Below, in pieces: positions 25,432 to 39,548 of a stretch of 39,548 nucleotides of DNA. Made by a program: the position numbers and the translations under genes. The notes beneath the pieces were generated by a model. It did not search any database and was not told the origin of the DNA. It saw only the letters and a list, made by a program, of their open reading frames with translations. Source of the DNA: Clostridiales bacterium (lineage in GTDB: Bacteria; Bacillota; Clostridia; Christensenellales; Aristaeellaceae). The first letter of the stretch is position 1. Every line of letters begins with the position of its first letter. Location: assembly GCA_012729115.1 (NCBI GenBank), contig JAAYDR010000032.1:1-39548 (forward strand). The letters are read 5' to 3'.

Positions 25432-25446
25432 TCCCCCTTCACACAA

Positions 25447-25481
25447 GGAACCGCGGCTATTTTGCGCCGTGGTTCCTTTTT
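25447..25481 (+). terminator. Terminator of the SH3-repeat gene
   Basis: GGAACCGCGGC and GCCGTGGTTCC form an 11-bp stem with one G-T pair (25447-25475), followed by TTTTTTATTG. Confidence 0.92.
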
Positions 25482-25588: not shown

Positions 25589-26746
25589 ATGAAGACTTCT
25601 TCCTTCCTTGAAGGCATGGCGGAATTAGGTGTGGACTTTTATGCCGGTGTTCCGGATTCTCTGCTTAAGCTATTGGGTGACGCAATTTACGAAAAGTACG
25701 GTGATCGGGGTCGCCATGTGGTGGCTGCCAATGAAGGCAATGCCGTGGCCCTGTGCGCCGGGCATTATATCGCTACAGGCAGGCCAGGCCTATGCTATAT
25801 GCAAAACAGCGGCATTGGAAACGCGGTGAACCCCATTGCTTCGCTCCTTAATGACAGGGTTTATGGCATCCCCTGCATCTTTGTAGTAGGCTGGCGTGGG
25901 GAGCCGGAGATAAAGGATGAGCCTCAGCATGCCTTCCAGGGGACCGTGACAAGGGAACTGCTGGAACTGATGGATTTGAAGGTATTCCCTCTCAACCAGG
26001 ATACAGGGGAGGAAGACTTTGCCATTACGCTCCCTCAGGTGAAAGATGCCTTGGCAGCCGGAAAGAGCGTGGCCTACCTGGTGAGTCAAGGGGGACTCTC
26101 CGACGGCCCCAAGGTGAGATTCGAATGTACCCGCACACTTAAGCGGGAGGAAGCCCTGCGGGAAATCCTGCGGGATTCCACAGATCGGGATATTTATGTA
26201 TCCACCACCGGAAAGACCTCCAGGGAGGTTTTCGAGTTGCGGGAGGCGCTGCATCAGGATCACAGCCATGATTTTCTGACAGTGGGCAGCATGGGACATG
26301 CGAGCATGATCGCCCTGGGCATCGCCATGGAAAAGCCGGACTTTACCATCTGGTGCCTGGACGGTGACGGAGCGGCGCTGATGCACCTGGGTTCTCTGGC
26401 GGTGGAGGCCCGGCAGCGGGTCCAGAACCTTGTTCATGTGCTGCTAAACAACGGTGCTCATGAGAGCGTGGGGGGTATGCCGGTATCCTGCGGGAATCTT
26501 TCCTTCGCGCCCATTGCTCAAGCAGTGGGATTTGACAGGTGCCTGATTGCCCAAACCATACCGCAGCTGCATTCCCAACTGGCTCTTGTGCGCAAACCGG
26601 GGCAAACCGGGCTGCGCTTTCTGGAGATTCTTCTGGCCCAAGGTTCCAGGCCCGATCTGGGCCGCCCCACCTTGACCCCCAAGCAGAATCTCCGCGGTCT
26701 GATGCATACCCTGAAGAATCACAAGCAAATGGAGTTAGTGCGATGA
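25589..26746 (+). CDS. aepY: Phosphonopyruvate decarboxylase
   Basis: The thiamine-diphosphate enzyme that pulls phosphonate synthesis forward by turning phosphonopyruvate into phosphonoacetaldehyde. The 385-residue single chain starts SFLEGMAELGVDFYAGVPDSLLKLL (VPDSLLK is diagnostic), has the catalytic NEG (Glu49), and the ThDP/Mg motif from GDG at 259-261 to NN at 287-288, followed by GAHESVGGMPV. The length matches the Ppd/Fom2 family. It begins at the ATG at 25589 with AAAGGGAG upstream and overlaps the next gene by four bases (ATGA). It heads a tight four-gene operon whose third gene makes its substrate. Confidence 0.94.
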   Translation: MKTSSFLEGMAELGVDFYAGVPDSLLKLLGDAIYEKYGDRGRHVVAANEGNAVALCAGHYIATGRPGLCYMQNSGIGNAVNPIASLLNDRVYGIPCIFVVGWRGEPEIKDEPQHAFQGTVTRELLELMDLKVFPLNQDTGEEDFAITLPQVKDALAAGKSVAYLVSQGGLSDGPKVRFECTRTLKREEALREILRDSTDRDIYVSTTGKTSREVFELREALHQDHSHDFLTVGSMGHASMIALGIAMEKPDFTIWCLDGDGAALMHLGSLAVEARQRVQNLVHVLLNNGAHESVGGMPVSCGNLSFAPIAQAVGFDRCLIAQTIPQLHSQLALVRKPGQTGLRFLEILLAQGSRPDLGRPTLTPKQNLRGLMHTLKNHKQMELVR

Positions 26747-27465
26747 AAGCGTTGATTCTAAACTCCGGCATGGGGACCCGTTTGGGGGACCTGACCCGGG
26801 ACAAGCCCAAGGGTTTGCTGGAAATCGGCGGGGGTTACACACTGCTGGGACGCCAACTGGAGCTTCTTTCGCAGTTGGGGGTCACCCAGGCGGTGATTAC
26901 CACCGGACCCTTCGCCTCCCTGCTGGAAGGCTACGTGAGAGGGCTTGAGCTTCCCATGGACATCACCTTTGTGCCCAATGAGGACTATGCCCGGACCAAT
27001 TATATCCAAAGCATGCACCTGGCAGCGCCACTGCTTGATGGTCATGAAACGCTGCTGCTCCATGGGGATCTGGTGCTTGAGGAAAGCGTACTATGGGATT
27101 TGCTCCTAAGTCCCGTAAGTGTCATGGCAGTGGACAGCAGCGCACCTCTGCCTGAGAAGGATTTCAAGGCTCGGCTTTGGGAAGGCCGTATTGTGGCCGT
27201 GGGCGTGGACTTGTTCGGGCCGGACTGCGTGGCTTGTCAGCCCGCCTATCGCTTTCGGGCAGAGGATTTCTCCGCTTGGCTTACCGCAATAGCAGATTTT
27301 GTCCAGCGTGGAGATGTCAGGGTATATGCCGAAAACGCCTTCAATGCCCTGCAGGGAAGATTACCTCTCTATCCCCTGGAACTTCATGGACGGCTTTGCA
27401 ACGAGATTGATGACCCTCAGGACCTGGCCCAGGTGGGGCACCGGTTTTTAAAGACCCTTGGCTAA
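26743..27465 (+). CDS. GT-A fold nucleotidyltransferase (LicC/phosphocholine cytidylyltransferase-like)
   Basis: A 240-residue nucleotidyltransferase. The N-terminus LILNSGMGTRLGDLTRDKPKGLLEIGG is the classic GxGxRLxxxTxxxPKxL nucleotide-binding signature, and LHGDLVLEES near residue 106 contains the metal-binding Asp. NEDYARTNYIQSMHLA resembles the LicC-like group that activates phosphocholine or similar small phosphoryl groups with CTP. Because it lies inside the phosphonate operon, the substrate is probably a phosphonate (2-hydroxyethylphosphonate or a derivative), but a sugar phosphate is possible. It overlaps the decarboxylase gene by ATGA and is 27 bases before the next gene. Substrate assignment is inference. 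Confidence 0.8.
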   Translation: MKALILNSGMGTRLGDLTRDKPKGLLEIGGGYTLLGRQLELLSQLGVTQAVITTGPFASLLEGYVRGLELPMDITFVPNEDYARTNYIQSMHLAAPLLDGHETLLLHGDLVLEESVLWDLLLSPVSVMAVDSSAPLPEKDFKARLWEGRIVAVGVDLFGPDCVACQPAYRFRAEDFSAWLTAIADFVQRGDVRVYAENAFNALQGRLPLYPLELHGRLCNEIDDPQDLAQVGHRFLKTLG

Positions 27466-27492
27466 TGTCCATTACGAAAAAGGGGTGTTTCG

Positions 27493-28788
27493 ATGAAACA
27501 GGTTTACATGTGCTTTAGTACGGATATCCTTCATAGTGGACATATCCGGATTCTTCGCCGGGCTGCGGAACTGGGCGAGCTTACCGTGGGTGTACTCACC
27601 GACGAGGCCATCGCGACATATAAACGCTATCCCCTCATCCCTCTTGCAGAGCGCATTCAGCTCTTTGAAAGTCTCAGCGATGTCAAGCGAGTGGTGGTGC
27701 AGCAAACCCTCAGTTACCGGGATATCTTGCAGGAACATACCCCTGACATTGTGGTTCATGGGGATGATTGGCGCACCGGTGTCCAGTCCGGGGTGCGGGA
27801 GGAGGTGGTGAGACTGCTGGCGGAGTACGGTGGAGAACTGGTTGAATGGCCCTATACACACAGCGCTGCCGAGGAAGCTTTCTCCGCCCTGAACGCCCGA
27901 ATGAGCATGCCGGAGGTCCGAAGGGGACGCCTGAGGCGGCTTCTTTCCATAAAACCGTTGCTCAGCGTCATGGAGGCTCATAATGGCCTCACCGGCCTGA
28001 TCGTAGAAAACACCCAGGTGGAGGCTCAGGGTGGCATGAAAGGCTTTGATGCCATGTGGGTCAGCTCCTTATGCGATTCCACCGCCAAGGGTAAGCCGGA
28101 CATTGAACTGGTGGATTTGACCAGCCGCATCGCCACCCTGGAGGAAATCATGGAGGTCACCACCAAACCCATCATCCTGGATGGGGATACCGGCGGCCAA
28201 ACCGAGCACTTTGTCTATACCCTGCGTACCCTGGAGCGCTTGGGGATTTCTGCCATCATCATTGAGGACAAGACGGGTCTGAAGAAAAATTCGCTTTTTG
28301 GCACCCAGGCTCAACAAAAGCAGGAAAATGTGGAGGCTTTCTGCGACAAGATCCGCGCAGGAAAACAGGCCCAAAAAACCAAGGATTTTATGATTTTTGC
28401 CCGCTGCGAAAGCTTGATCCTCAATCAGGGACAGGAGGACGCCCTTCACCGCTGCCACAGCTATGTGACAGCGGGAGCGGATGGCATTATGATCCACAGC
28501 TGCCAAAGGACACCGGACGAAGTCCTGGAATTCCTGGCACGTTTTCGGGAAACCGACAAGACCACCCCAGTCGTTGTGGTTCCCACTACCTACGACAGTA
28601 TCACAGAGCCGGAATTGCAGGCCGCCGGAGCCAACATCGTCATTTATGCCAACCACCTGCTTCGCAGCGCATTTCCCGCCATGGTAAAGACTGCTCAAAC
28701 CATCCTCACCCATGGCCGCTCCCAGGAGGCAGACTCCTTGTGCATGCCGATCAAGCAGATCCTCACGCTGATTCCCACTGAAGACTAA
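27493..28788 (+). CDS. Bifunctional cytidylyltransferase-phosphoenolpyruvate mutase (Fom1-like)
   Basis: The entry enzyme of phosphonate synthesis, fused to an activating domain. Residues 1-130 are a TagD-type nucleotidyltransferase with HSGH (14-17), the HxGH nucleotide motif; the usual C-terminal RTxGISTT of TagD is replaced by YTHSAAEEA. Residues about 145-430 are PEP mutase: DGDTGG (230-234), and EDKTGLKKNS (258-267), matching EDK-x5-NS, the signature that separates mutases from other isocitrate-lyase relatives. The mutase forms the carbon-phosphorus bond of phosphonopyruvate. The same domain order occurs in Fom1 of Streptomyces fosfomycin pathways, where the N-terminal domain attaches CMP to 2-hydroxyethylphosphonate. 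AAGGGGTG precedes the ATG. Mutase identity is very sure, the CMP transfer role likely. Confidence 0.92.
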   Translation: MKQVYMCFSTDILHSGHIRILRRAAELGELTVGVLTDEAIATYKRYPLIPLAERIQLFESLSDVKRVVVQQTLSYRDILQEHTPDIVVHGDDWRTGVQSGVREEVVRLLAEYGGELVEWPYTHSAAEEAFSALNARMSMPEVRRGRLRRLLSIKPLLSVMEAHNGLTGLIVENTQVEAQGGMKGFDAMWVSSLCDSTAKGKPDIELVDLTSRIATLEEIMEVTTKPIILDGDTGGQTEHFVYTLRTLERLGISAIIIEDKTGLKKNSLFGTQAQQKQENVEAFCDKIRAGKQAQKTKDFMIFARCESLILNQGQEDALHRCHSYVTAGADGIMIHSCQRTPDEVLEFLARFRETDKTTPVVVVPTTYDSITEPELQAAGANIVIYANHLLRSAFPAMVKTAQTILTHGRSQEADSLCMPIKQILTLIPTED

Positions 28789-28798
28789 GGAGGATATT

Positions 28799-29953
28799 AT
28801 GGAATCCTTATCACCCTTCTGCCCGGTGGATGTCCGTCTGCTGGATCGAACCCGGGGGGAAACTGCCCTAAGGGAACTGCTTGGTGGCACTCCTGAAAAA
28901 ATGCTGGTGCTGGCTCCCCGCTTCCTATGTACGGAGTTGTCACTGGCACCTCTTTTCTCCGCTCTGCAAGGGGACGGCCATTGCCTGCATCTGGTTACGG
29001 ACATCCAATCCAACCCCAGCGTGGAGCACCTGGCCACATTGCTGGCTCAACTGAGGGAACAGGGCTTTGACCCCACCTGCATCCTGGCCATCGGCGGCGG
29101 AAGCTGCATAGACATGGCCAAGGGAATCAGCGCCCTGTGGCACCTGACTCCCGACGAGACTTCCGGACCGGATACGGTGCGCGAAGCCATCCAAGCCCAA
29201 AAATACCTGCGCAAGGATCATACCTTTCTGAGTATCCTGGCCATGCCCACTACTGCCGGAACCGGCAGCGAGGTCACCCATTGGGCCACCATCTGGGATA
29301 CCCAGCAAGGCCGGAAACTGTCCATCGACTGTGCGGCATGCTATCCCAAGGCAGCCATTCTGATCCCTGAATGGACTGTTGGAATGCCTGCCTCCCTGAC
29401 CCTTTCCACCGGCCTTGACGCTCTTTCCCACGCTATGGAGGCCTTCTGGGCCAAGGCCCGTAACCCATTCAGCCAAGCCCTGGCCATCACGGCAGTGGAT
29501 CGAGTGCGCCGCTTTCTGCCTCAGGTACTGGCCGCTCCCCTGGATGCGAATCTCCGCCGGGAAATGTGTTTGGCTTCCCTGTTGGCAGGCCTGGCCTTTT
29601 CACAGACCCGTACTACCGCCTGTCACAGTCTGAGTTACCCGCTTACCCTGCTCCACGGAATGCCTCACGGCTATGCCGCCGCCATTACGTTGGCACCCGT
29701 GATGAAGCGCAACCGGGCCGTCCTGCCTGACATCGCGGAACTGGAGGCCCTCTTTTGTAGGGACGGGGGCTTCGACCTCTGGCTGGAGCACGTCAGCAAT
29801 GATATCCAGTCCCTACGGCTGTCTGCCTTTAGCGTTCCGGAGGAGGCCCTGCCTGCTGTTGCCCAGTCCGCCTTTACCACCGGTCGAATGGACAACAATC
29901 CCATTGTTTTCACCCCGGAGGAGTCTCTGCAAATTCTGCGGGAATGCATATAG
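28799..29953 (+). CDS. Iron-containing alcohol dehydrogenase, probable phosphonoacetaldehyde reductase
   Basis: A 384-residue group III (iron-type) alcohol dehydrogenase. The NAD(P) loop is GGGSCID (99-105), TTAGTGSEVTHWA (151-163) is the family signature, and metal ligands are Asp207, His211, His276 and His290 (TGLDALSHAME, ACHSLSYPLTLLHGMPHGYA). In phosphonate clusters such enzymes (FomC, PhpC) reduce phosphonoacetaldehyde to 2-hydroxyethylphosphonate, and no transaminase for the alternative 2-aminoethylphosphonate is present here. AAGGAGG precedes the ATG, 10 bases after the mutase gene. It is the last gene of the operon. The assignment rests on family and neighbours. Confidence 0.88.
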   Translation: MESLSPFCPVDVRLLDRTRGETALRELLGGTPEKMLVLAPRFLCTELSLAPLFSALQGDGHCLHLVTDIQSNPSVEHLATLLAQLREQGFDPTCILAIGGGSCIDMAKGISALWHLTPDETSGPDTVREAIQAQKYLRKDHTFLSILAMPTTAGTGSEVTHWATIWDTQQGRKLSIDCAACYPKAAILIPEWTVGMPASLTLSTGLDALSHAMEAFWAKARNPFSQALAITAVDRVRRFLPQVLAAPLDANLRREMCLASLLAGLAFSQTRTTACHSLSYPLTLLHGMPHGYAAAITLAPVMKRNRAVLPDIAELEALFCRDGGFDLWLEHVSNDIQSLRLSAFSVPEEALPAVAQSAFTTGRMDNNPIVFTPEESLQILRECI

Positions 29954-32569: not shown

Positions 32570-32601
32570 GATCAATGACAAAAACCATCAGGAGGCATTT
32601 T

Positions 32602-33437
32602 ATGACCAGAAATATGCTCATCGGGTATCAACTCTATTCCGCCAGAGAACTCGCTGAGGCAGATCTGAAAGGCGTGCTGCACCATCTGGCATCCATGGGA
32701 TACGAAGGTGTGGAGTTTGCAGGATTTTATGGTCACAGCACACAGGAGATTGGTGAACTCCTTGAAGCAACGGGTCTGAGTGCATTTAGCAGCCATGTGC
32801 CACTGAAAGCGATTCAGGAGGATATGACCGGGGTGATTCAGTTTCATAAGGCGATAGGCTGTCCCTTTATCGCTATACCCTATCTGGATGAGGCGACCCG
32901 TCCCGGCGCACCCGGCTTCTCATCCGTGCTGCGGCTGCTGTACAGGTTTGGCTATCAATGTAAGGAAACGGCATCGAGCTTCTTTACCACAACCATGACT
33001 TTGAATTTGTAGAAATCAGCGGTCAGGCCGGGCTGGACTTCCTCTTTGATGCGCTGCCAGAAAACCTTTTGCAAACCGAACTGGACACCTGCTGGGTGAA
33101 GTACTCCGGTATCGATCCCATCGCTTATTTGGGTAAGTACGCCGGGCGCGCCCCTGTACTGCACTTGAAGGACTTCGTGGGTCAAAAGACCGATCAGCCG
33201 CCCTACGGACTGCTGGGCCTTCCGCCCCTTAAGACAGCCATTGATAAACCGGATGGTGCGATCCCCTTCGCCTACCGGCCTTTGGGCCATGGCTGTCAGG
33301 ATGTTCCCGCCCTTTGGAAAGCTGCCCAGGATGCCGGCGTCATGTATGTCATTGTGGAGCAGGACAACTCTCCCGATGGAGACCCCCTTGGGGATGCCGG
33401 AAAGAGTATGGAAACCCTGCGCAAGATGAGGGGCTAG
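32602..33437 (+). pseudogene. Xylose isomerase-like TIM-barrel sugar phosphate isomerase/epimerase, frameshifted
   Basis: Two frames make one protein. The first starts at 32602 after AGGAGG and encodes MLIGYQLYSARELAEADLKGVL, HHLASMGYEGVEFAGFYG and VLRLLYRFGYQCKE, then goes astray. The second frame continues with ELLYHNHDFEFVE, the metal-binding HNHDFE motif of the family, and later LHLKDF and VIVEQD. Restoring one A in the GGAAACGG run at 32966-32968 gives an unbroken product of about 278 residues, KENGIELLYHNHDFEF. So a single-base deletion broke the gene, or the sequence has an error there. If real, the cell lacks this activity. The family assignment is confident; substrate unknown. Confidence 0.88.
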
Positions 33438-33451
33438 ATCCATCCCGCCCG

Positions 33452-34774
33452 CTATCTCCAGTCAACCGCAACCTCATTGATGTATGGGTCCGCATAGAAC
33501 AATTTTCCGGTGGCCCAAGGCAACTTAACCCGATATTCACATAACTTAGCCGCTGCGTCGCCGCTTTCAAGCAGTTTTTTTCTTGCACCCTCCATCACTT
33601 TTGTGTCCTGTTTGGACATGGAATGTGCTGCGGTTACAAAAGCCAGAGCTGCATCCTGATAGGCTGCTTCAAACGCATCAATTGCTTCCTGCTGCTTTGC
33701 AGTAATCCCATTTTTGCCATAGCCGGCAATATACTCCCGCAGTTGATCCGCCACCGACAAAACGTGCACCGTCCTGAAACCAGCATCCTCAAGCCACTTC
33801 GTATACTCAAACCCGACATACTGAAGAGGCGGCACATCCACGCCATATACCTCTTTGATCACTGTTTGACGGTTCTGCTGATCGGTGAAGGTAAAATTCC
33901 ACCCATTGAGCGCAGTCCTATATTTCCCTGACAGTACATAAGAGCCAATGGAATGCTCACTCATCCCCATTGCAATGGACAGCAGCCTGAAAGTCTCCGT
34001 GACCGGTTCATTGATGATATTCGTAAAGAACCCGTCTTTCATTTCTTGCGCCGCCTTGACAGTCTTTATCACGAGCTCCGGATTGGTTTTTAGCTTCTGG
34101 AAAATCGCCAGCATCAGCTTACGCTGACGCCCGGTCCGGCCGATATCATTGGCATTGACGGTGGCATTGGTTCTGGAGCGCATATAGTCAGTGATACCAA
34201 CCCCGTCCAAATGATGCAAACCCTTACGGTACTTTTTGCCACTGTGGCCCGTGTAAGACATTTCCAGCTCAAAGTCGACACCATCCAGGGCGTCTCCTAA
34301 GGCAGCCATTGTATTCATGTCCACAGCAAAATAGTAATCCATTTGAATGCCGCCCATTAACCATGAGGCAGCCTCTGAAATCCTGCAAAGGCCGTCTTCC
34401 ATGCTATCTCCACAATTGATTGCGGCATTTAGTTTATAGATCCCTTTTACCCCGGGAACATAGGTGAGCGTATCTCTTGGAAGAGAAATCATATCCGCAG
34501 TCTTTTCATCTGTGTTGACTGCGATTACCAAGACAGCGTCTGTGTGACAATTTTCCAGGGATTTCTTTCCACCGCTTCCCCAGTATCCTTTGTGTCCAAA
34601 ATCAATGCCCAGCAGCAGGATGTTGGTGATGCTTCCAGGCAACTTCATATATTCGGTGATGGGTTGCGGATAGAGCAGCGGGTTTTGAAAGCTCTCCGTC
34701 TCCGCCAAGGCACAGGAGCCAAACAGAAACACCTCTGCGATGGATATTGCTGTGATTTTTAAGATGATACGCAT
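33452..34774 (-). CDS. LytR-CpsA-Psr (LCP) family ligase
   Basis: LCP enzymes transfer lipid-linked glycopolymers to peptidoglycan. The 440-residue protein has a signal-like N-terminus (ILKITAISIAEVFLFGSCALA), then the LCP domain: ITNILLLGIDFGHKGYWG (about 48-66), HTDAVLVIAVNTDEKTADMISLPRDTLTYVPG (about 80-112, with the pyrophosphate-binding Arg and Asp), and the YMRSRTNATVNANDIGRTGRQRKLM loop (about 195-220) with conserved Arg residues. About 150 C-terminal residues after the domain are helical and not typical of short LCP proteins. GGAGGAG precedes the ATG. It ends the polysaccharide operon and probably attaches its product to the wall. Confidence 0.92.
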   Translation of the reverse strand: MRIILKITAISIAEVFLFGSCALAETESFQNPLLYPQPITEYMKLPGSITNILLLGIDFGHKGYWGSGGKKSLENCHTDAVLVIAVNTDEKTADMISLPRDTLTYVPGVKGIYKLNAAINCGDSMEDGLCRISEAASWLMGGIQMDYYFAVDMNTMAALGDALDGVDFELEMSYTGHSGKKYRKGLHHLDGVGITDYMRSRTNATVNANDIGRTGRQRKLMLAIFQKLKTNPELVIKTVKAAQEMKDGFFTNIINEPVTETFRLLSIAMGMSEHSIGSYVLSGKYRTALNGWNFTFTDQQNRQTVIKEVYGVDVPPLQYVGFEYTKWLEDAGFRTVHVLSVADQLREYIAGYGKNGITAKQQEAIDAFEAAYQDAALAFVTAAHSMSKQDTKVMEGARKKLLESGDAAAKLCEYRVKLPWATGKLFYADPYINEVAVDWR

Positions 34775-34802
34775 GTTTCTCCTCCATCGTCACACATATG
34801 AT

Positions 34803-36332
34803 TTACTCAGTTGTGGGAAAAACCTTTGCGATTAACTTGAGTATTTTGGTGTTCAGTAGATACATATTACTGATAAATAAAAGGATGGCAATTATCCCGT
34901 ACAGAAAAACGGAAACAAGCCTGGATGAAAACGCTAATAACCCTTTGATCAGAAAAACAATAACAGTAGTTAATAAAATAGCTGCTTGTGTTTTCAGGAG
35001 TACATTCAGATATGGCTTAATGGAAATGACCAATCCATACTTATTTTTCAGCCTTGTGAAATTATCGATTACCGAAATAAGACCTGAAAACAGGGTGCCT
35101 GATACAACTCCATACACCCCCCAAAAATACGAAAAAATCAGGCACATAATAATATTAAAGATGCAAGTGATGAGACTGTTCTTCATGGATGACTTTGTAT
35201 CACCTTCAGCAGAAAAATACTTATAGATCAAGTTACTTATAACATTTGCCTGCTGGCTAAAAATAAAAATGCACATGCAGTAAAAGACACTATCTGCAGC
35301 ATCAGCGGTGAACTTGCCATTTTCATAGAGCAAGCAGACAAAATCTCTGCCGACAATGAGAAACCCTGCAACAATCAGGCCTATCACAGCATTAAAAACG
35401 ACTATGGATCCCCACAAGGCATGCTGCCCCTGCTTTCTTCCTTCGTTTACTGTTATTATAAATTGGGGAAATACATAAGCGGACAAATTACCGATAAACA
35501 ATGTATTAATCATGACATTTATTGTATTGGCAAAACCAAGGACTGTCAGTTGTCCTTTGCCCAAATTTGACGTAATCATCGTATAAATCATAATATTGAG
35601 TGCGTAAATGCCTGTGCCAAAGACAGCCGGCAATATTAAACGACACATTTCACGGAACATTTTATCTGTAAGGTCAAAAGTAATCCGGAATCTAAAACCA
35701 TAAAACACAGCACATATCACATCAACAACGAATTGAAAAAATGCTCCCCCCACCAGTATGCCGAGATACCCGTCAATGGTAAAATTTTCATATACACTTA
35801 ATACAACTGCAACTGCCAGGTTTGAAATCATCAGGATAATCTTTGGTAAGTTAAATTTATCCCTGCTTTGATAATATGCCATTGTCACGCTGAGCATTGC
35901 AGGAAGCATCTGAATAAGGATCGAGAAAAGCATTGTACGGCTGACGCAATCTCTAAACTCATCTTCCCTGTCAGTCAACACATCAACAATCTGACCGCGG
36001 AAAACAAATGTCAGCAAGAGAAATAAACCGGTAACAAGGAAAACGGTTGAAATCATGGAATCAATGGAGGAGCGCTTCATTTTATTGACAAACGCTGGAA
36101 CAAGTACGGTGATGATCCCTGAGGTAACAATGATACTAAAGAATGATGCAATATTGTTACTGAAATTATATGCATCCAGTTCAGTACTCGCACCAAAGTT
36201 AGCTGCAATGATGGAAGATTTGTACATAGCGACTACTTGCGTCACCATTGTTATCGCGATCATGAGTGAAAGTTGCGTTATGGATCTGGCCCGCGATGAC
36301 TTTGCGAATACTACCCCCACTTTGGCATTCAT
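34803..36332 (-). CDS. Lipid-linked oligosaccharide flippase (MurJ/MVF-Wzx type)
   Basis: A roughly 509-residue protein with about fourteen membrane segments, of the MurJ/MviN-like branch of the MOP superfamily. TMVTQVVAMYKSSIIAANFGASTELDAYNFSNNI near the N-terminus is the branch hallmark (A-x-FG-xx-xE-x-DAY). It should flip the undecaprenyl-linked repeat unit of the neighbouring polysaccharide, or lipid II. The frame extends to 36434; I favour the ATG at 36332, the first before the conserved hydrophobic part, preceded by GAAGGA at a long spacing, but 36386 is also possible. Base composition is A+T-rich. It is in the same strand and order as the polymerase-like and glycosyltransferase genes. 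Confidence 0.85.
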   Translation of the reverse strand: MNAKVGVVFAKSSRARSITQLSLMIAITMVTQVVAMYKSSIIAANFGASTELDAYNFSNNIASFFSIIVTSGIITVLVPAFVNKMKRSSIDSMISTVFLVTGLFLLLTFVFRGQIVDVLTDREDEFRDCVSRTMLFSILIQMLPAMLSVTMAYYQSRDKFNLPKIILMISNLAVAVVLSVYENFTIDGYLGILVGGAFFQFVVDVICAVFYGFRFRITFDLTDKMFREMCRLILPAVFGTGIYALNIMIYTMITSNLGKGQLTVLGFANTINVMINTLFIGNLSAYVFPQFIITVNEGRKQGQHALWGSIVVFNAVIGLIVAGFLIVGRDFVCLLYENGKFTADAADSVFYCMCIFIFSQQANVISNLIYKYFSAEGDTKSSMKNSLITCIFNIIMCLIFSYFWGVYGVVSGTLFSGLISVIDNFTRLKNKYGLVISIKPYLNVLLKTQAAILLTTVIVFLIKGLLAFSSRLVSVFLYGIIAILLFISNMYLLNTKILKLIAKVFPTTE

Positions 36333-36534
36333 ACTGTGATTATATCCTTCTTTATTGTTGTGATACAGCAAATTAAGTGTTTGCATTCGCGATCTCTTTG
36401 CAGAGATGTATGTACCCAGGAATTTTGTTCGCAACTCCTCAAGAACTCAAGCTCATTATGCACCATGGCTAGATAGGCAGCACGGTCTTCATTTTACCCC
36501 GTAAAAGCATCATAGATTACCATATTGCTTTGGT

Positions 36535-37656
36535 TTATACTACAGCGCATCTTCGCAAGGGCGACAATGAAACCGCTGCATTTTTCTTGTATATCGAATG
36601 CATTGCAACCATGATTGCAGGATAGGCAAACATATCAAATATACCCGTCTCAATGAATCCATAAAGGATATACACCACAGCTAAAACCAACCCCCGATAC
36701 TCCAGTTTCTTTGAGGCAAGAGCAAAAATGAAAGCCAAAGGAAGGATGAAAAAAGCACCACTGTACACAAACATATACAGGTAAGCGTTATCCACATACA
36801 GAAGTCGTCCATTAACAATTTTAAACGTCATATCGACACCGAACCATGTGATCCCATATAACTTCACTCCTTGGGCACCAAGGGTCATCCTTCCTGTTGT
36901 CAACTTGTCAAGCAGATTATAAACTCCCCGCAATGCAGGAACCATATCCAGCGCAAAATAGGTAAAGCTCACAGGCAAAATCAGTAGTATCCCGTACTTT
37001 GTAAAAAACCGGAAGACAAGGTGAACCTTTCTTGTATCCTTAAGCAGCCATGCAATATATGGAATGGCAAGAACAACCACTGCATCGGATCTTGTAAAGA
37101 AATATACACAGGTGGCCGCGACGGCGGTTCCAGCCCAGTACCTCCAGTTCAACTGATGGAAATGGAGATAGATATACATCATGCTGCAAAAAATGAATTG
37201 CCGACCACCCTGATTTGGGTGTTGCCAGCAAAAAAGATTATAACGTACTCCATCAATTGCTGTGAGCATACCGGGCTTGAGCAGATAGCAGATAACAAAA
37301 GCAGAAACATTGATCCAATAGACAATGCCGGTACAACAAAGTATGAGTTTCACAATATGGTCGATATCTTTGTTCCATATAAAAAAAAGGATATAGGAGA
37401 GATATAGTATCCAGTTTCTCCCCAGAGAGACCGACTCATAAACTCCGATGCTAATAAACAGGTAATAGATGAAAATATGCTTTAATGGGGCGGATAGAGT
37501 GAGTATATTACAGAGCATAAGCACGAGCATAGCCATCATCCAGGGAAATCTGACAGTTACGTAATAATCCTTCAATACTTGCGACACTTCCATCGCATGT
37601 CCCAGTGCGAGTATGATGATTGAAAAATCAAACACCAACGATTTTCTGCTCTTCAT
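36535..37656 (-). CDS. Polysaccharide polymerase-like membrane protein (Wzy-like)
   Basis: A 373-residue protein with about ten hydrophobic segments and a large loop in the middle, the shape of O-antigen/capsule polymerases. A segment near residue 145 (WQHPNQGGRQFIFC) and one near residue 235 (LLDKLTTGRMTLGAQGVKLYGITWFG) resemble the H-x-N-x2-G and R-x15-G type extracytoplasmic motifs seen in Wzy proteins. AAAGGA seven bases before the ATG at 37656 sets the start over an upstream TTG. It overlaps the preceding glycosyltransferase by 29 bases. It polymerises the repeat unit if the assignment is right; sequence divergence keeps certainty moderate. Confidence 0.75.
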   Translation of the reverse strand: MKSRKSLVFDFSIIILALGHAMEVSQVLKDYYVTVRFPWMMAMLVLMLCNILTLSAPLKHIFIYYLFISIGVYESVSLGRNWILYLSYILFFIWNKDIDHIVKLILCCTGIVYWINVSAFVICYLLKPGMLTAIDGVRYNLFCWQHPNQGGRQFIFCSMMYIYLHFHQLNWRYWAGTAVAATCVYFFTRSDAVVVLAIPYIAWLLKDTRKVHLVFRFFTKYGILLILPVSFTYFALDMVPALRGVYNLLDKLTTGRMTLGAQGVKLYGITWFGVDMTFKIVNGRLLYVDNAYLYMFVYSGAFFILPLAFIFALASKKLEYRGLVLAVVYILYGFIETGIFDMFAYPAIMVAMHSIYKKNAAVSLSPLRRCAVV

Positions 37657-38635
37657 GTACAAGTCCTTTCACTCTATGGATAATGTCATCCAAATGGCGT
37701 TTCAGTTCAGCAACTGCGTAAAGGATGCTTGTGCAGCGATTATTAAGGAGAATACGGATCAAATGGCACTTAAGACCTGAAGGTATATTTTCTTTTGAGA
37801 AGTCCTTCAGTCCCTCCATGAGTAGGAGCGCTTCCAAAGTAACGCCCAAATCAAACTTGCTTTGACATGCAAACAGGATCAGCCAGATTTGTTCGAAAAA
37901 CCTGTTGACCACCAGACACATGGATATCTGCCGCGTATACGCAAGCGCGGCCATGTTGCGTATATCGTACATGATCGCTTCCATCCTCAGGCGGCTGTTT
38001 TTCGTCAGTGATCCCGCATTTTCCGAATAATAAGTATACAAAGGACGCTCTATGATCGTAATCTTCTGGACATCACCGAGATAATCGCATACAAATTTCA
38101 GATCCTCCCCCATGGAATGCTGCGTATCAAAACGGGTTTTTACACACGAACGTACCAGCATTTTATTGCATAACGTGTTGATGCCGTATCTTTTGATCCA
38201 GTCCTCGCAATAGTCATTCACTCTCTCCTGCTTCGTAGGGAGCCATGTTCCCATGGTCTCTCCATGATCATTCACATATGTAAATCCGCAGGTCGTAAGA
38301 TCCGCCTGTGTTTCGCTTGCTGCATGATAAAGCAGCGCCAGACAGTCTGCATCCAACTCATCGTCGGCATCAACAAAATAGAGGTACTGGCCACAGGTGC
38401 ACTCCATACCGGCGTTGCGGGCCGATGAAACACCACCGTTTTCCTGGTGGATGACAGTGAATCTTTCATCCATGGCCGTATAACGGTCCAGGATGGCACC
38501 AGTCCCATCCTGCGATCCGTCATCGATAAGGACTGCCTGCCAGTCATGGAAGGATTGCAGCCGTATGCTATCGAGCATCCTTTCGATCAACTTTTCTGCA
38601 TTATAGGCCGGAATTACGATACTGATCTTACACAT
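37628..38635 (-). CDS. Family 2 glycosyltransferase
   Basis: A 335-residue GT-A transferase. The first 110 residues carry SIVIPAYNAEKLIERMLDSI, LIDDGSQDGT (Asp in DDGS, 38-41), HQENGGVSSARNAGMECTCGQYLYFVDADDELD (metal-binding DADD at 89-92), as in EpsJ-type enzymes that add a sugar to a lipid-linked chain. The C-terminal part is helical with no membrane segment. It follows the next glycosyltransferase by seven bases and overlaps the polymerase-like gene. Donor sugar unknown. Confidence 0.9.
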   Translation of the reverse strand: MCKISIVIPAYNAEKLIERMLDSIRLQSFHDWQAVLIDDGSQDGTGAILDRYTAMDERFTVIHQENGGVSSARNAGMECTCGQYLYFVDADDELDADCLALLYHAASETQADLTTCGFTYVNDHGETMGTWLPTKQERVNDYCEDWIKRYGINTLCNKMLVRSCVKTRFDTQHSMGEDLKFVCDYLGDVQKITIIERPLYTYYSENAGSLTKNSRLRMEAIMYDIRNMAALAYTRQISMCLVVNRFFEQIWLILFACQSKFDLGVTLEALLLMEGLKDFSKENIPSGLKCHLIRILLNNRCTSILYAVAELKRHLDDIIHRVKGLVHEEQKIVGV

Positions 38636-38642
38636 GGTGCTT

Positions 38643-39548
38643 TTATGATATCTCCTTTGTTTGTAGGGGGATGGTGGCCGTGTGTTTTCTACGCTCTTTT
38701 GTTATCCTGTATGCTTCCTTCAACTTCTCAAAAGCTCTGTACCCTTTACAAATCCAAAAGGCTGCATGGTGTCGCATTAAAAAGAGGACCAATTTTCCTT
38801 TCAGGCTTAAGGCGTTTCGGGGATACTCCCGGATCATCACTTGAAGCCGATGATCACACAGATAGCTATCGACCTTTTTAATTCGTTCCTTCGCTGAAAG
38901 GGGAGAGTATTTCCAGACCGTATCGATGATGCATTCATAAATACACAAGATCCAGAACCGTTTCAGAGCATCCTGCATATCATTTAAAAGCCCCGCATCC
39001 TGCAGCACTTTTTCATAGCAGCTAAAAAGCGCGCTCTTTGTGGTATACATGTTTGGATGATGCCGAAGAGACAGAGATCCCTCTCTTGTGTCATAGCAGT
39101 ATAGCGCCCTATGCACAATGGATAGGCATCTCGCTTTCACCAGCACGTTCAGGTTAAACAAATAGTCCTCGTTGACAACTTCTCTTTCCGACTGAAATGA
39201 TATTCCGTTTCCCAACAAAAAAATCCGGCGATAGGCGTAGGCCCAAGCCGAAGCGAGGATAGTGGGCTGCTCTATGATCTTTTTTATACAAATCATCTCA
39301 GGCAGAATCGTGCATTTAATAGACTCCTGGGTATACACCCCTTCCGGAACGCGGGAATAGGAGCAACTAACGGTTTCTCCCTGCTGTATTCTATAAGAGC
39401 CAAATCCAAGTACATCAACCGCTTCCGTCAGGTGGCTTTTGATAACCGCAACATAGTCGTCGCAGACAAAATCATCTGAATCCACAAAGGTTACAAAATC
39501 GCCGTCCGCTTTCGTCAGTCCATAATTCCGCGCGCTGGAAAGCCCGCC
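38643..39548 (-). CDS. Family 2 glycosyltransferase, 5' end outside the window
   Basis: The gene runs off the right end. From 39548 the frame reads GGLSSARNYGLTKADGDFVTFVDSDDFVCDDYV, the conserved centre of a GT2 catalytic domain with the DSDD metal site, so about 60-70 N-terminal residues are missing. A GTG at 39485 is only an internal codon. The helical C-terminus has KLVLFLMRHHAAFW. It is the most upstream visible gene of the minus-strand polysaccharide cluster, which continues to the right. Donor sugar unknown. Confidence 0.88.
   Translation of the reverse strand, partial: GGLSSARNYGLTKADGDFVTFVDSDDFVCDDYVAVIKSHLTEAVDVLGFGSYRIQQGETVSCSYSRVPEGVYTQESIKCTILPEMICIKKIIEQPTILASAWAYAYRRIFLLGNGISFQSEREVVNEDYLFNLNVLVKARCLSIVHRALYCYDTREGSLSLRHHPNMYTTKSALFSCYEKVLQDAGLLNDMQDALKRFWILCIYECIIDTVWKYSPLSAKERIKKVDSYLCDHRLQVMIREYPRNALSLKGKLVLFLMRHHAAFWICKGYRAFEKLKEAYRITKERRKHTATIPLQTKEIS

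What the first reader, a model, noticed from the sequence alone, without database searches (positions are those of the whole stretch)
25589..29953. Four-gene operon for CMP-activated 2-hydroxyethylphosphonate without fosfomycin genes
PEP mutase makes phosphonopyruvate, the decarboxylase drives it to phosphonoacetaldehyde, and the iron-type dehydrogenase reduces this to 2-hydroxyethylphosphonate; the fused cytidylyltransferase should attach CMP as in Fom1. The C-methyltransferase and epoxidase for fosfomycin are absent. A CMP-phosphonate is a natural donor for decorating glycans or teichoic acids, in the manner of CDP-choline. A phosphonate-decorated envelope in this lineage is the likely outcome, and the acceptor transferase is not in the window.
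Basis: partly seen in the sequence, partly recalled or inferred. Interest (0 to 1): 0.72.

Follow-up and report, generated by a model that had tools for sequence, protein, structure and literature searches.

The report
Operon making CMP-activated phosphonate
Four bacterial genes should build a small carbon-phosphorus compound and load it onto CMP for attachment to a surface sugar; the chemistry is of a known kind, but the paired loading enzymes and a candidate attachment gene found elsewhere in the genome are new, testable leads.

Summary
25589-29953(+) holds four genes in one run: phosphonopyruvate decarboxylase, a LicC/PntC-fold nucleotidyltransferase, a Fom1-type cytidylyltransferase fused to PEP mutase, and an iron-type dehydrogenase. 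In the 80 best relatives kept from public genomes it lies directly upstream of the fusion protein in 67, in one reading frame in 49. In 23 of 23 aligned copies the acid that contacts the amine of aminoethylphosphonate in Treponema PntC is a histidine. No aminoethylphosphonate transaminase passed its cut-off in 7 genomes. Both favour 2-hydroxyethylphosphonate. No acceptor transferase is in the window, but the genome has one LicD-family match, on another contig, beside a sugar transferase and a split transketolase. Its ortholog occurs with the fusion protein in 69 and without it in 10 of 300 genomes; in the window's genus only this genome of 17 has either. CTP activation, the triple fusion and LicD-like partners are already in print (PMC6697681). 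This is a new variant of a known kind. No product, substrate or acceptor is shown.

The parts
25445..25478 (+). terminator-like hairpin between the upstream SH3-domain gene and ppd; probable left edge of the operon
   Evidence: 13-pair stem, 8-base loop, T-rich tail; a consensus match only, and the scan as a whole found fewer sites than shuffles
25589..26746 (+). phosphonopyruvate decarboxylase (Ppd), TPP-dependent
   Evidence: TIGR03297 406 bits, above cut-off 312.5; TPP_enzyme_N and _C
26743..27465 (+). LicC/PntC-fold nucleotidyltransferase, probably a second phosphonate cytidylyltransferase; His107 in place of the amine-contacting acid
27493..27915 (+). Fom1-type cytidylyltransferase domain (N-terminal part of the fusion protein), HxGH motif at residues 14-17
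   Evidence: PF01467; best solved relative is the Fom1 CyTase 5x3d, 133 bits; H14, G16, H17 invariant in 10 of 10
27931..28788 (+). PEP mutase domain of the same protein, EDKTGLKKNS motif
   Evidence: TIGR02320 403 bits, above cut-off; PF13714
28799..29953 (+). iron-type alcohol dehydrogenase, probable phosphonoacetaldehyde reductase; D207, H211, H276, H290 at the usual metal-ligand positions (their role is recalled)
   Evidence: PF00465 and PF25137; best NCBIfam TIGR03405 PsrA 261 bits but below its cut-off 423.7; D207, H276, H290 kept in all aligned copies, H211 is Gln in one of 4 (L036) and one of 6 (L128)

Best explanation
The operon makes CMP-activated 2-hydroxyethylphosphonate as a donor for surface glycans. 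Shown by sequence: the four enzymes, the tandem of two cytidylyltransferases, and their conservation as a unit. Inferred from family chemistry: PEP mutase makes phosphonopyruvate; Ppd pulls the unfavourable step forward by decarboxylation; the dehydrogenase reduces phosphonoacetaldehyde to HEP; the Fom1-type domain joins HEP to CMP. Inferred from residues: the LicC/PntC-type enzyme (gene 2) also activates a phosphonate without an amine, HEP or a derivative of it. Inferred from gene distribution: the unlinked LicD protein (G000 contig C22, 33482-34231), beside a sugar transferase and a split transketolase, moves the phosphonate from CMP to a lipid-linked or polymeric glycan; some relatives have LicD genes inside the same cluster.
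For: Family hits. Conserved gene set: of the 80 loci kept, 71 have ppd, 60 a dehydrogenase, 67 the NTase directly upstream. 21 of 80 have a LicD homolog within the fetched DNA; LicD, flippase, glycosyltransferase or rfb genes, named by eye, surround the copies in G019, G048, G027, G018. No PhnW-type transaminase over the cut-off in 7 of 7 genomes (none of its 14 control genomes passed either, so there was no positive control). NTase: H107 and E197 in 23 of 23; by tblastn H in 70 and E in 71 of 72. LicD ortholog (E<=1e-60) against fusion protein: both 69, fusion only 26, LicD only 10, neither 195 of 300; at 1e-30: 72, 23, 18, 187. All 10 genera with that LicD also hold the fusion protein, which occurs in 23 of 50 genera (p 1e-4). 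Nine congeners keep the transketolase-C gene with no LicD match (E<=1e-10) on that contig (in G008 the contig ends there).
Against: Ten genomes have the LicD locus without PEP mutase; a TIGR02320 search found none there, so this LicD can be kept without phosphonate. 26 genomes have the fusion protein without this LicD (some have a LicD nearby instead). The co-occurrence is not corrected for phylogeny, and the 1e-60 line was drawn after seeing the gap. The dehydrogenase is under the PsrA cut-off; a second, diverged type (about 30% identical) serves fused versions, and 20 of 80 loci show none (some cut by contig ends). Why two cytidylyltransferases are needed is unexplained. No product, activity or expression data.
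Confidence: 0.6

Rival explanations
1. The two cytidylyltransferases act on different substrates: the Fom1-type domain on HEP, gene 2 on something that is not a phosphonate, such as a sugar, inositol or polyol phosphate used in the same glycan.
Against: The first-ranked solved structures are LicC (Foldseek) and PntC (VIA-align); gene 2 is fused in frame to the phosphonate enzymes in 49 of 80 loci.
Confidence: 0.2
2. The product is a small secreted phosphonate (HEP ester or derivative), with CMP as a temporary handle as in fosfomycin biosynthesis.
For: The Fom1 precedent (PMC6697681, section 6 read). In G029 no glycan genes were seen in the 7-8 kb read on either side of the operon (by eye); in the window the nearest are 3.5 kb away.
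Against: No tailoring, export or resistance gene in the operon; 21 of 80 relatives carry LicD and several sit in polysaccharide loci; LicD co-occurrence.
Confidence: 0.12
3. The LicD link is not functional: related genomes share both loci by descent, and LicD here transfers another group.
For: Ten genomes have LicD without any PEP mutase. LicD has other cytidylyltransferase partners in this order: 10 of the 12 short, partial matches to the fusion protein lie beside a LicD match. No phylogenetic correction.
Against: Within genus g1 the only genome of 17 with this LicD is the only one with the fusion protein, while nine congeners keep the transketolase-C gene with no LicD match on that contig; all 10 LicD genera are fusion-protein genera.
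Confidence: 0.25
4. The pathway ends in 2-aminoethylphosphonate, as in PntC clusters of oral bacteria.
For: Gene 2 has the PntC fold.
Against: A dehydrogenase stands where those clusters have a transaminase; no transaminase over the cut-off in 7 of 7 genomes (without a positive control); the residue opposite Tde-PntC Glu104 is His.
Confidence: 0.06

Closest known systems
Fom1 (fosfomycin biosynthesis, Streptomyces wedmorensis): cytidylyltransferase fused to PEP mutase
   Same: Same domain order; the N-terminal domain is nearest to the Fom1 CyTase (5x3d, 133 bits); CMP-HEP is the Fom1 product (PMC6697681, section 6)
   Different: Separate second cytidylyltransferase; no fosfomycin tailoring genes seen in the window; LicD association in relatives
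Pnt clusters (Rice et al. 2019, PMC6697681): PntC and Ppm of oral anaerobes
   Same: CTP activation of a phosphonate, LicC/PntC fold, LicD-like partners; fusion of Ppm to both PF12804 and PF01467 already counted there (42 of 1485)
   Different: Dehydrogenase in place of the AEP transaminase; His in place of the Glu that contacts the AEP amine; LicD unlinked in the window's genome
lic pathway (LicA-LicC-LicD, phosphocholine decoration)
   Same: Cytidylyltransferase makes a CMP donor, a LicD protein is the proposed transferase
   Different: Phosphonate made de novo; no choline genes in the operon
Phosphonoglycans of Glycomyces and Stackebrandtia (Yu et al. 2014; only the reference line was seen, in PMC8931226; HEP content recalled)
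   Same: HEP-type phosphonate on a polysaccharide is the likely end point
   Different: Different phylum; acceptor here unknown

Membership tests
PEP mutase | TIGR02320 score over cut-off and EDKxxxxxNS motif | tested here: met
   403 bits against 319.6; EDKTGLKKNS at residues 258-267 of window:27493-28785
Phosphonopyruvate decarboxylase | TIGR03297 equivalog score over cut-off | tested here: met
   406 bits against 312.5
Fom1-type HEP cytidylyltransferase | PF01467 domain N-terminal to PEP mutase, nearest to Fom1 CyTase, with HxGH | tested here: met
Fom1-type HEP cytidylyltransferase | CMP-HEP formation | not testable with these tools
   needs an enzyme assay
PntC (AEP cytidylyltransferase) | LicC/PntC fold | tested here: met
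PntC (AEP cytidylyltransferase) | acidic residue at Tde-PntC Glu104, which contacts the AEP amine | tested here: not met
   His in 23 of 23 aligned copies; by tblastn His in 70 of 72, Ser in the distant L194, and Gly in L128 where one search aligns His. Gene 2 is therefore not filed as PntC
PntC (AEP cytidylyltransferase) | acid equivalent to LicC Asp192 / Tde-PntC Glu196 | tested here: met
   Glu197 in 23 of 23 and 71 of 72 by tblastn, placed by the LicC alignment and the equivalence stated in PMC6697681 section 8
PsrA-type phosphonoacetaldehyde reductase (TIGR03405) | score over the equivalog cut-off | tested here: not met
   261 bits against 423.7, yet the best of 14 models; filed as 'works like', not as a member
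LicD transferase (unlinked candidate, G000 contig C22) | PF04991 over cut-off | tested here: met
   88.9 bits against 22.6
Fosfomycin cluster | C-methyltransferase and epoxidase genes next to Fom1 | tested here: not met
   none among 33 further window proteins scanned with Pfam; some short frames were not scanned, and the rest of the genome was not searched
AEP pathway | PhnW/AepZ transaminase (TIGR03301) over cut-off in the genome | tested here: not met
   0 of 7 genomes over cut-off, best 47 bits against 360.8; 0 of 14 control genomes over cut-off, so no positive control

The most novel reading that the evidence does not exclude
The tandem makes two different CMP-phosphonates: CMP-HEP by the Fom1-type domain and a second, amine-free CMP-phosphonate by the His-type LicC-fold enzyme, perhaps on a substrate built by the transketolase-like pair. 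The unlinked LicD at the sugar transferase-transketolase locus is then a dedicated phosphonate-to-glycan transferase, gained and lost together with the donor operon.
Probability: 0.12. Interest if true: 0.8.

Novelty: new variant of a known kind. Interest (0 to 1): 0.5.

Why it matters
The step that hands a phosphonate from CMP to a glycan has no enzyme in the one detailed paper on this logic read here (PMC6697681 calls the later steps unknown). A LicD gene that tracks the donor operon across genera, and named strains that carry the cluster, make that step directly testable. The frequent pairing of two cytidylyltransferases is an open puzzle that two simple assays could settle.

Tried and rejected
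Rejected: glycerol-3-phosphate activation by the fused domain (1coz 37.5 bits against 133 for Fom1). Rejected: AEP as product (no transaminase over the cut-off; His107). Weighed and left open: CDP-alcohol phosphatidyltransferases as transferase (PF01066 found in 7 of 7 genomes and in all 14 control genomes, so not informative). Weighed: the surface-polysaccharide genes at 33.4-39.5 kb as acceptor locus; no such genes were seen around the operon in G029, so the closeness may be chance. GC of the four genes (0.55-0.60) is near the window mean (0.54), so it gives no sign of recent import. Paper searches for LicD + transketolase + phosphonate gave 0 papers; phosphonate + LicD + cytidylyltransferase + PepM (at least 3 of 4) gave 3, of which one is to the point; phosphonothrixin/ketotransferase/transketolase gave no paper used. 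These searches cover only the held open-access library. A transketolase-like TPP enzyme in phosphonothrixin biosynthesis is recalled, not seen.

Rows dropped and limits: 22 of the 72 loci with an NTase match, plus the window, were aligned; L145 (a stop in its NTase) and L200 (no reason recorded) stood in the failed and were left out; all 72 were checked by tblastn afterwards. Of nine congener transketolase loci, three were read in full and a fourth up to its contig end; a fifth (L208) was fetched and not read, four were judged only from the match tables, and in one of these (G008) the contig ends beside the gene. Listings of L034-L044, L062-L066, L114, L117, L120 and L204-L207 were read by eye; only nine of their proteins went through family models or structures.
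Full report
OBSERVATION. The window (a whole contig) carries four + strand genes at 25589-26746, 26743-27465, 27493-28788 and 28799-29953. The first two overlap; the others follow at gaps of 27 and 10 bases. A terminator-like hairpin at 25445-25478 lies between the upstream SH3-domain gene and ppd (the scan as a whole found 2 such sites against 5.5 in shuffles). Family models name a phosphonopyruvate decarboxylase and a PEP mutase above their cut-offs, a PF01467 domain at the N-terminus of the mutase, a PF12804 nucleotidyltransferase, and an iron-type dehydrogenase. So the finding is real and its coordinates are exact. Thirty-three further window proteins were scanned; none looks like a phosphonate or fosfomycin gene.

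THE FUSED DOMAIN. The N-terminal domain of gene 3 scores 133 bits against the Fom1 cytidylyltransferase domain 5x3d and 37.5 bits against glycerol-3-phosphate cytidylyltransferase. HxGH residues are invariant in 10 of 10. Fom1 makes CMP-HEP (PMC6697681, section 6, read).

THE DEHYDROGENASE. The best NCBIfam model is PsrA, but below its cut-off (261 against 423.7 bits). It works like a phosphonoacetaldehyde reductase on genomic context; it is not filed as PsrA.

RELATIVES. Of these 80 loci, 72 have a nucleotidyltransferase match, 67 directly upstream of the fusion protein; in 49 the two are in one open frame and in 18 separate. 71 have ppd and 60 a dehydrogenase (some loci are cut by contig ends). 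The triple fusion was already counted in 2019 as 42 of 1485 Ppm proteins (PMC6697681, section 6). Named strains among the hits include Ruminococcus sp. FC2018, Ruminococcus albus KH2T6, Ruminococcaceae bacterium P7 and Massiliimalia timonensis. The four-gene order of the window is shared by L123-L128. Genome G029 is probably Clostridiales bacterium Firm_11, judged from equal contig length and position.

ACCEPTOR TRANSFERASE. LicD homologs lie inside the fetched DNA of 21 of 80 loci. For scale, 39 matches over the LicD cut-off were listed for 60 whole genomes, roughly 0.3 per megabase, while the 80 loci total 1.1 megabases; the detection methods differ, so this is only a rough contrast. In G019 a LicD-like gene (weak, 19.8 bits against a cut-off of 22.6) sits directly before the triple fusion in what reads as a polysaccharide locus; in G048 a clear LicD is about 4 kb away. 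In the window's own genome one LicD-family match is found, on contig C22, in the order sugar transferase, transketolase N, transketolase C, LicD, flippase.

CO-OCCURRENCE. In 300 genomes of the family the fusion protein (E<=1e-60) is in 95. The C22 LicD protein has an ortholog group at E<=1e-60 in 79, set apart by a gap from about 5e-61 to 6e-49. Cross-table: both 69, fusion only 26, LicD only 10, neither 195; at 1e-30 the numbers are 72, 23, 18 and 187. Fisher's p is tiny (6.5e-35) but assumes independent genomes. By genus, all 10 genera with that LicD also hold the fusion protein, which occurs in 23 of the 50 genera sampled (p 1.1e-4). In the window's genus, 1 of 17 genomes has both and 16 have neither, although eight... 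of those 16 do have more distant LicD matches or none as listed. The transketolase-C gene lies within 4 kb of LicD in 76 of 79 genomes. It is also present in nine congeners without the ortholog; in those, LicD matches (E<=1e-10) are absent or on another contig, and the four loci looked at show no LicD-sized frame of that kind beside it. In the six LicD-ortholog genomes tested, a transketolase-N gene lies beside LicD and at least one further transketolase-N match lies elsewhere; in G137 that further match is weak (27.7 bits). So LicD appears to have been added to an older sugar transferase-transketolase locus in genomes that make the donor, or lost with it.

AGAINST. Ten genomes keep this LicD locus with no PEP mutase at all, one of them 99% complete. 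26 genomes have the fusion protein without this LicD. LicD has other partners in this order: 10 of the 12 short, partial matches to the fusion protein lie beside a LicD match. The link is therefore strong but not exclusive, and phylogeny was not modelled. The transaminase search had no positive control. The role of the transketolase pair and the need for two cytidylyltransferases are unexplained.

COMPARISON WITH PRINT. Nucleotidyl activation of phosphonates, Ppm fusions to either or both nucleotidyltransferase families, and LicD-like partners are published (PMC6697681: abstract and sections 4, 6, 7, 8, 10 read, plus passages). PMC8931226 (passages seen) names HEP among the most abundant phosphonates of marine dissolved matter and discusses phosphonoglycans. 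I found no paper joining LicD, transketolase and phosphonate (open-access library only).

VERDICT. An ordinary pathway logic with an unusual tandem and a new candidate for the missing transferase: new variant of a known kind, interest 0.5.

Noticed in passing
window 33452-39485 (-): A second surface-polysaccharide locus begins 3.5 kb from the operon and runs to the contig end: LCP protein, MurJ-like flippase (GC 0.38), a polymerase-like membrane protein without Pfam match, a family 2 glycosyltransferase and a further protein without Pfam match that looks like part of one.
   Followed up: partly
positions listed (G039:C8, G043:C54, G046:C33, G052:C43, G026:C61, G044:C13, G009:C157, G004:C11, G013:C134, G035:C118): Stand-alone CTP_transf_like genes sit beside LicD in ten relatives in which no full-length fusion protein was found: a recurrent cytidylyltransferase-LicD pair with an unknown substrate.
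   Followed up: no
L040 9482-12724 (-), L044, L041, L114, L117, L120: Conserved locus sugar transferase-transketolase N-transketolase C-LicD; the reason for a transketolase in a glycan locus is unknown.
   Followed up: partly
L165, L176, L189, L196, L198: A second, partial match to the cytidylyltransferase domain lies about 1 kb behind the fusion protein near ppd, in four of these five without the LicC-fold enzyme: possibly another way to have two cytidylyltransferases.
   Followed up: no
window 32575-33437 (+): Two neighbouring short frames, the second with a weak match to a xylose isomerase-like barrel below its cut-off, may be one interrupted gene.
   Followed up: no
G018:C22:14976-16265 (L006): The triple-fusion gene of this genome has one in-frame TAG and may be a pseudogene or an assembly error.
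   Followed up: no
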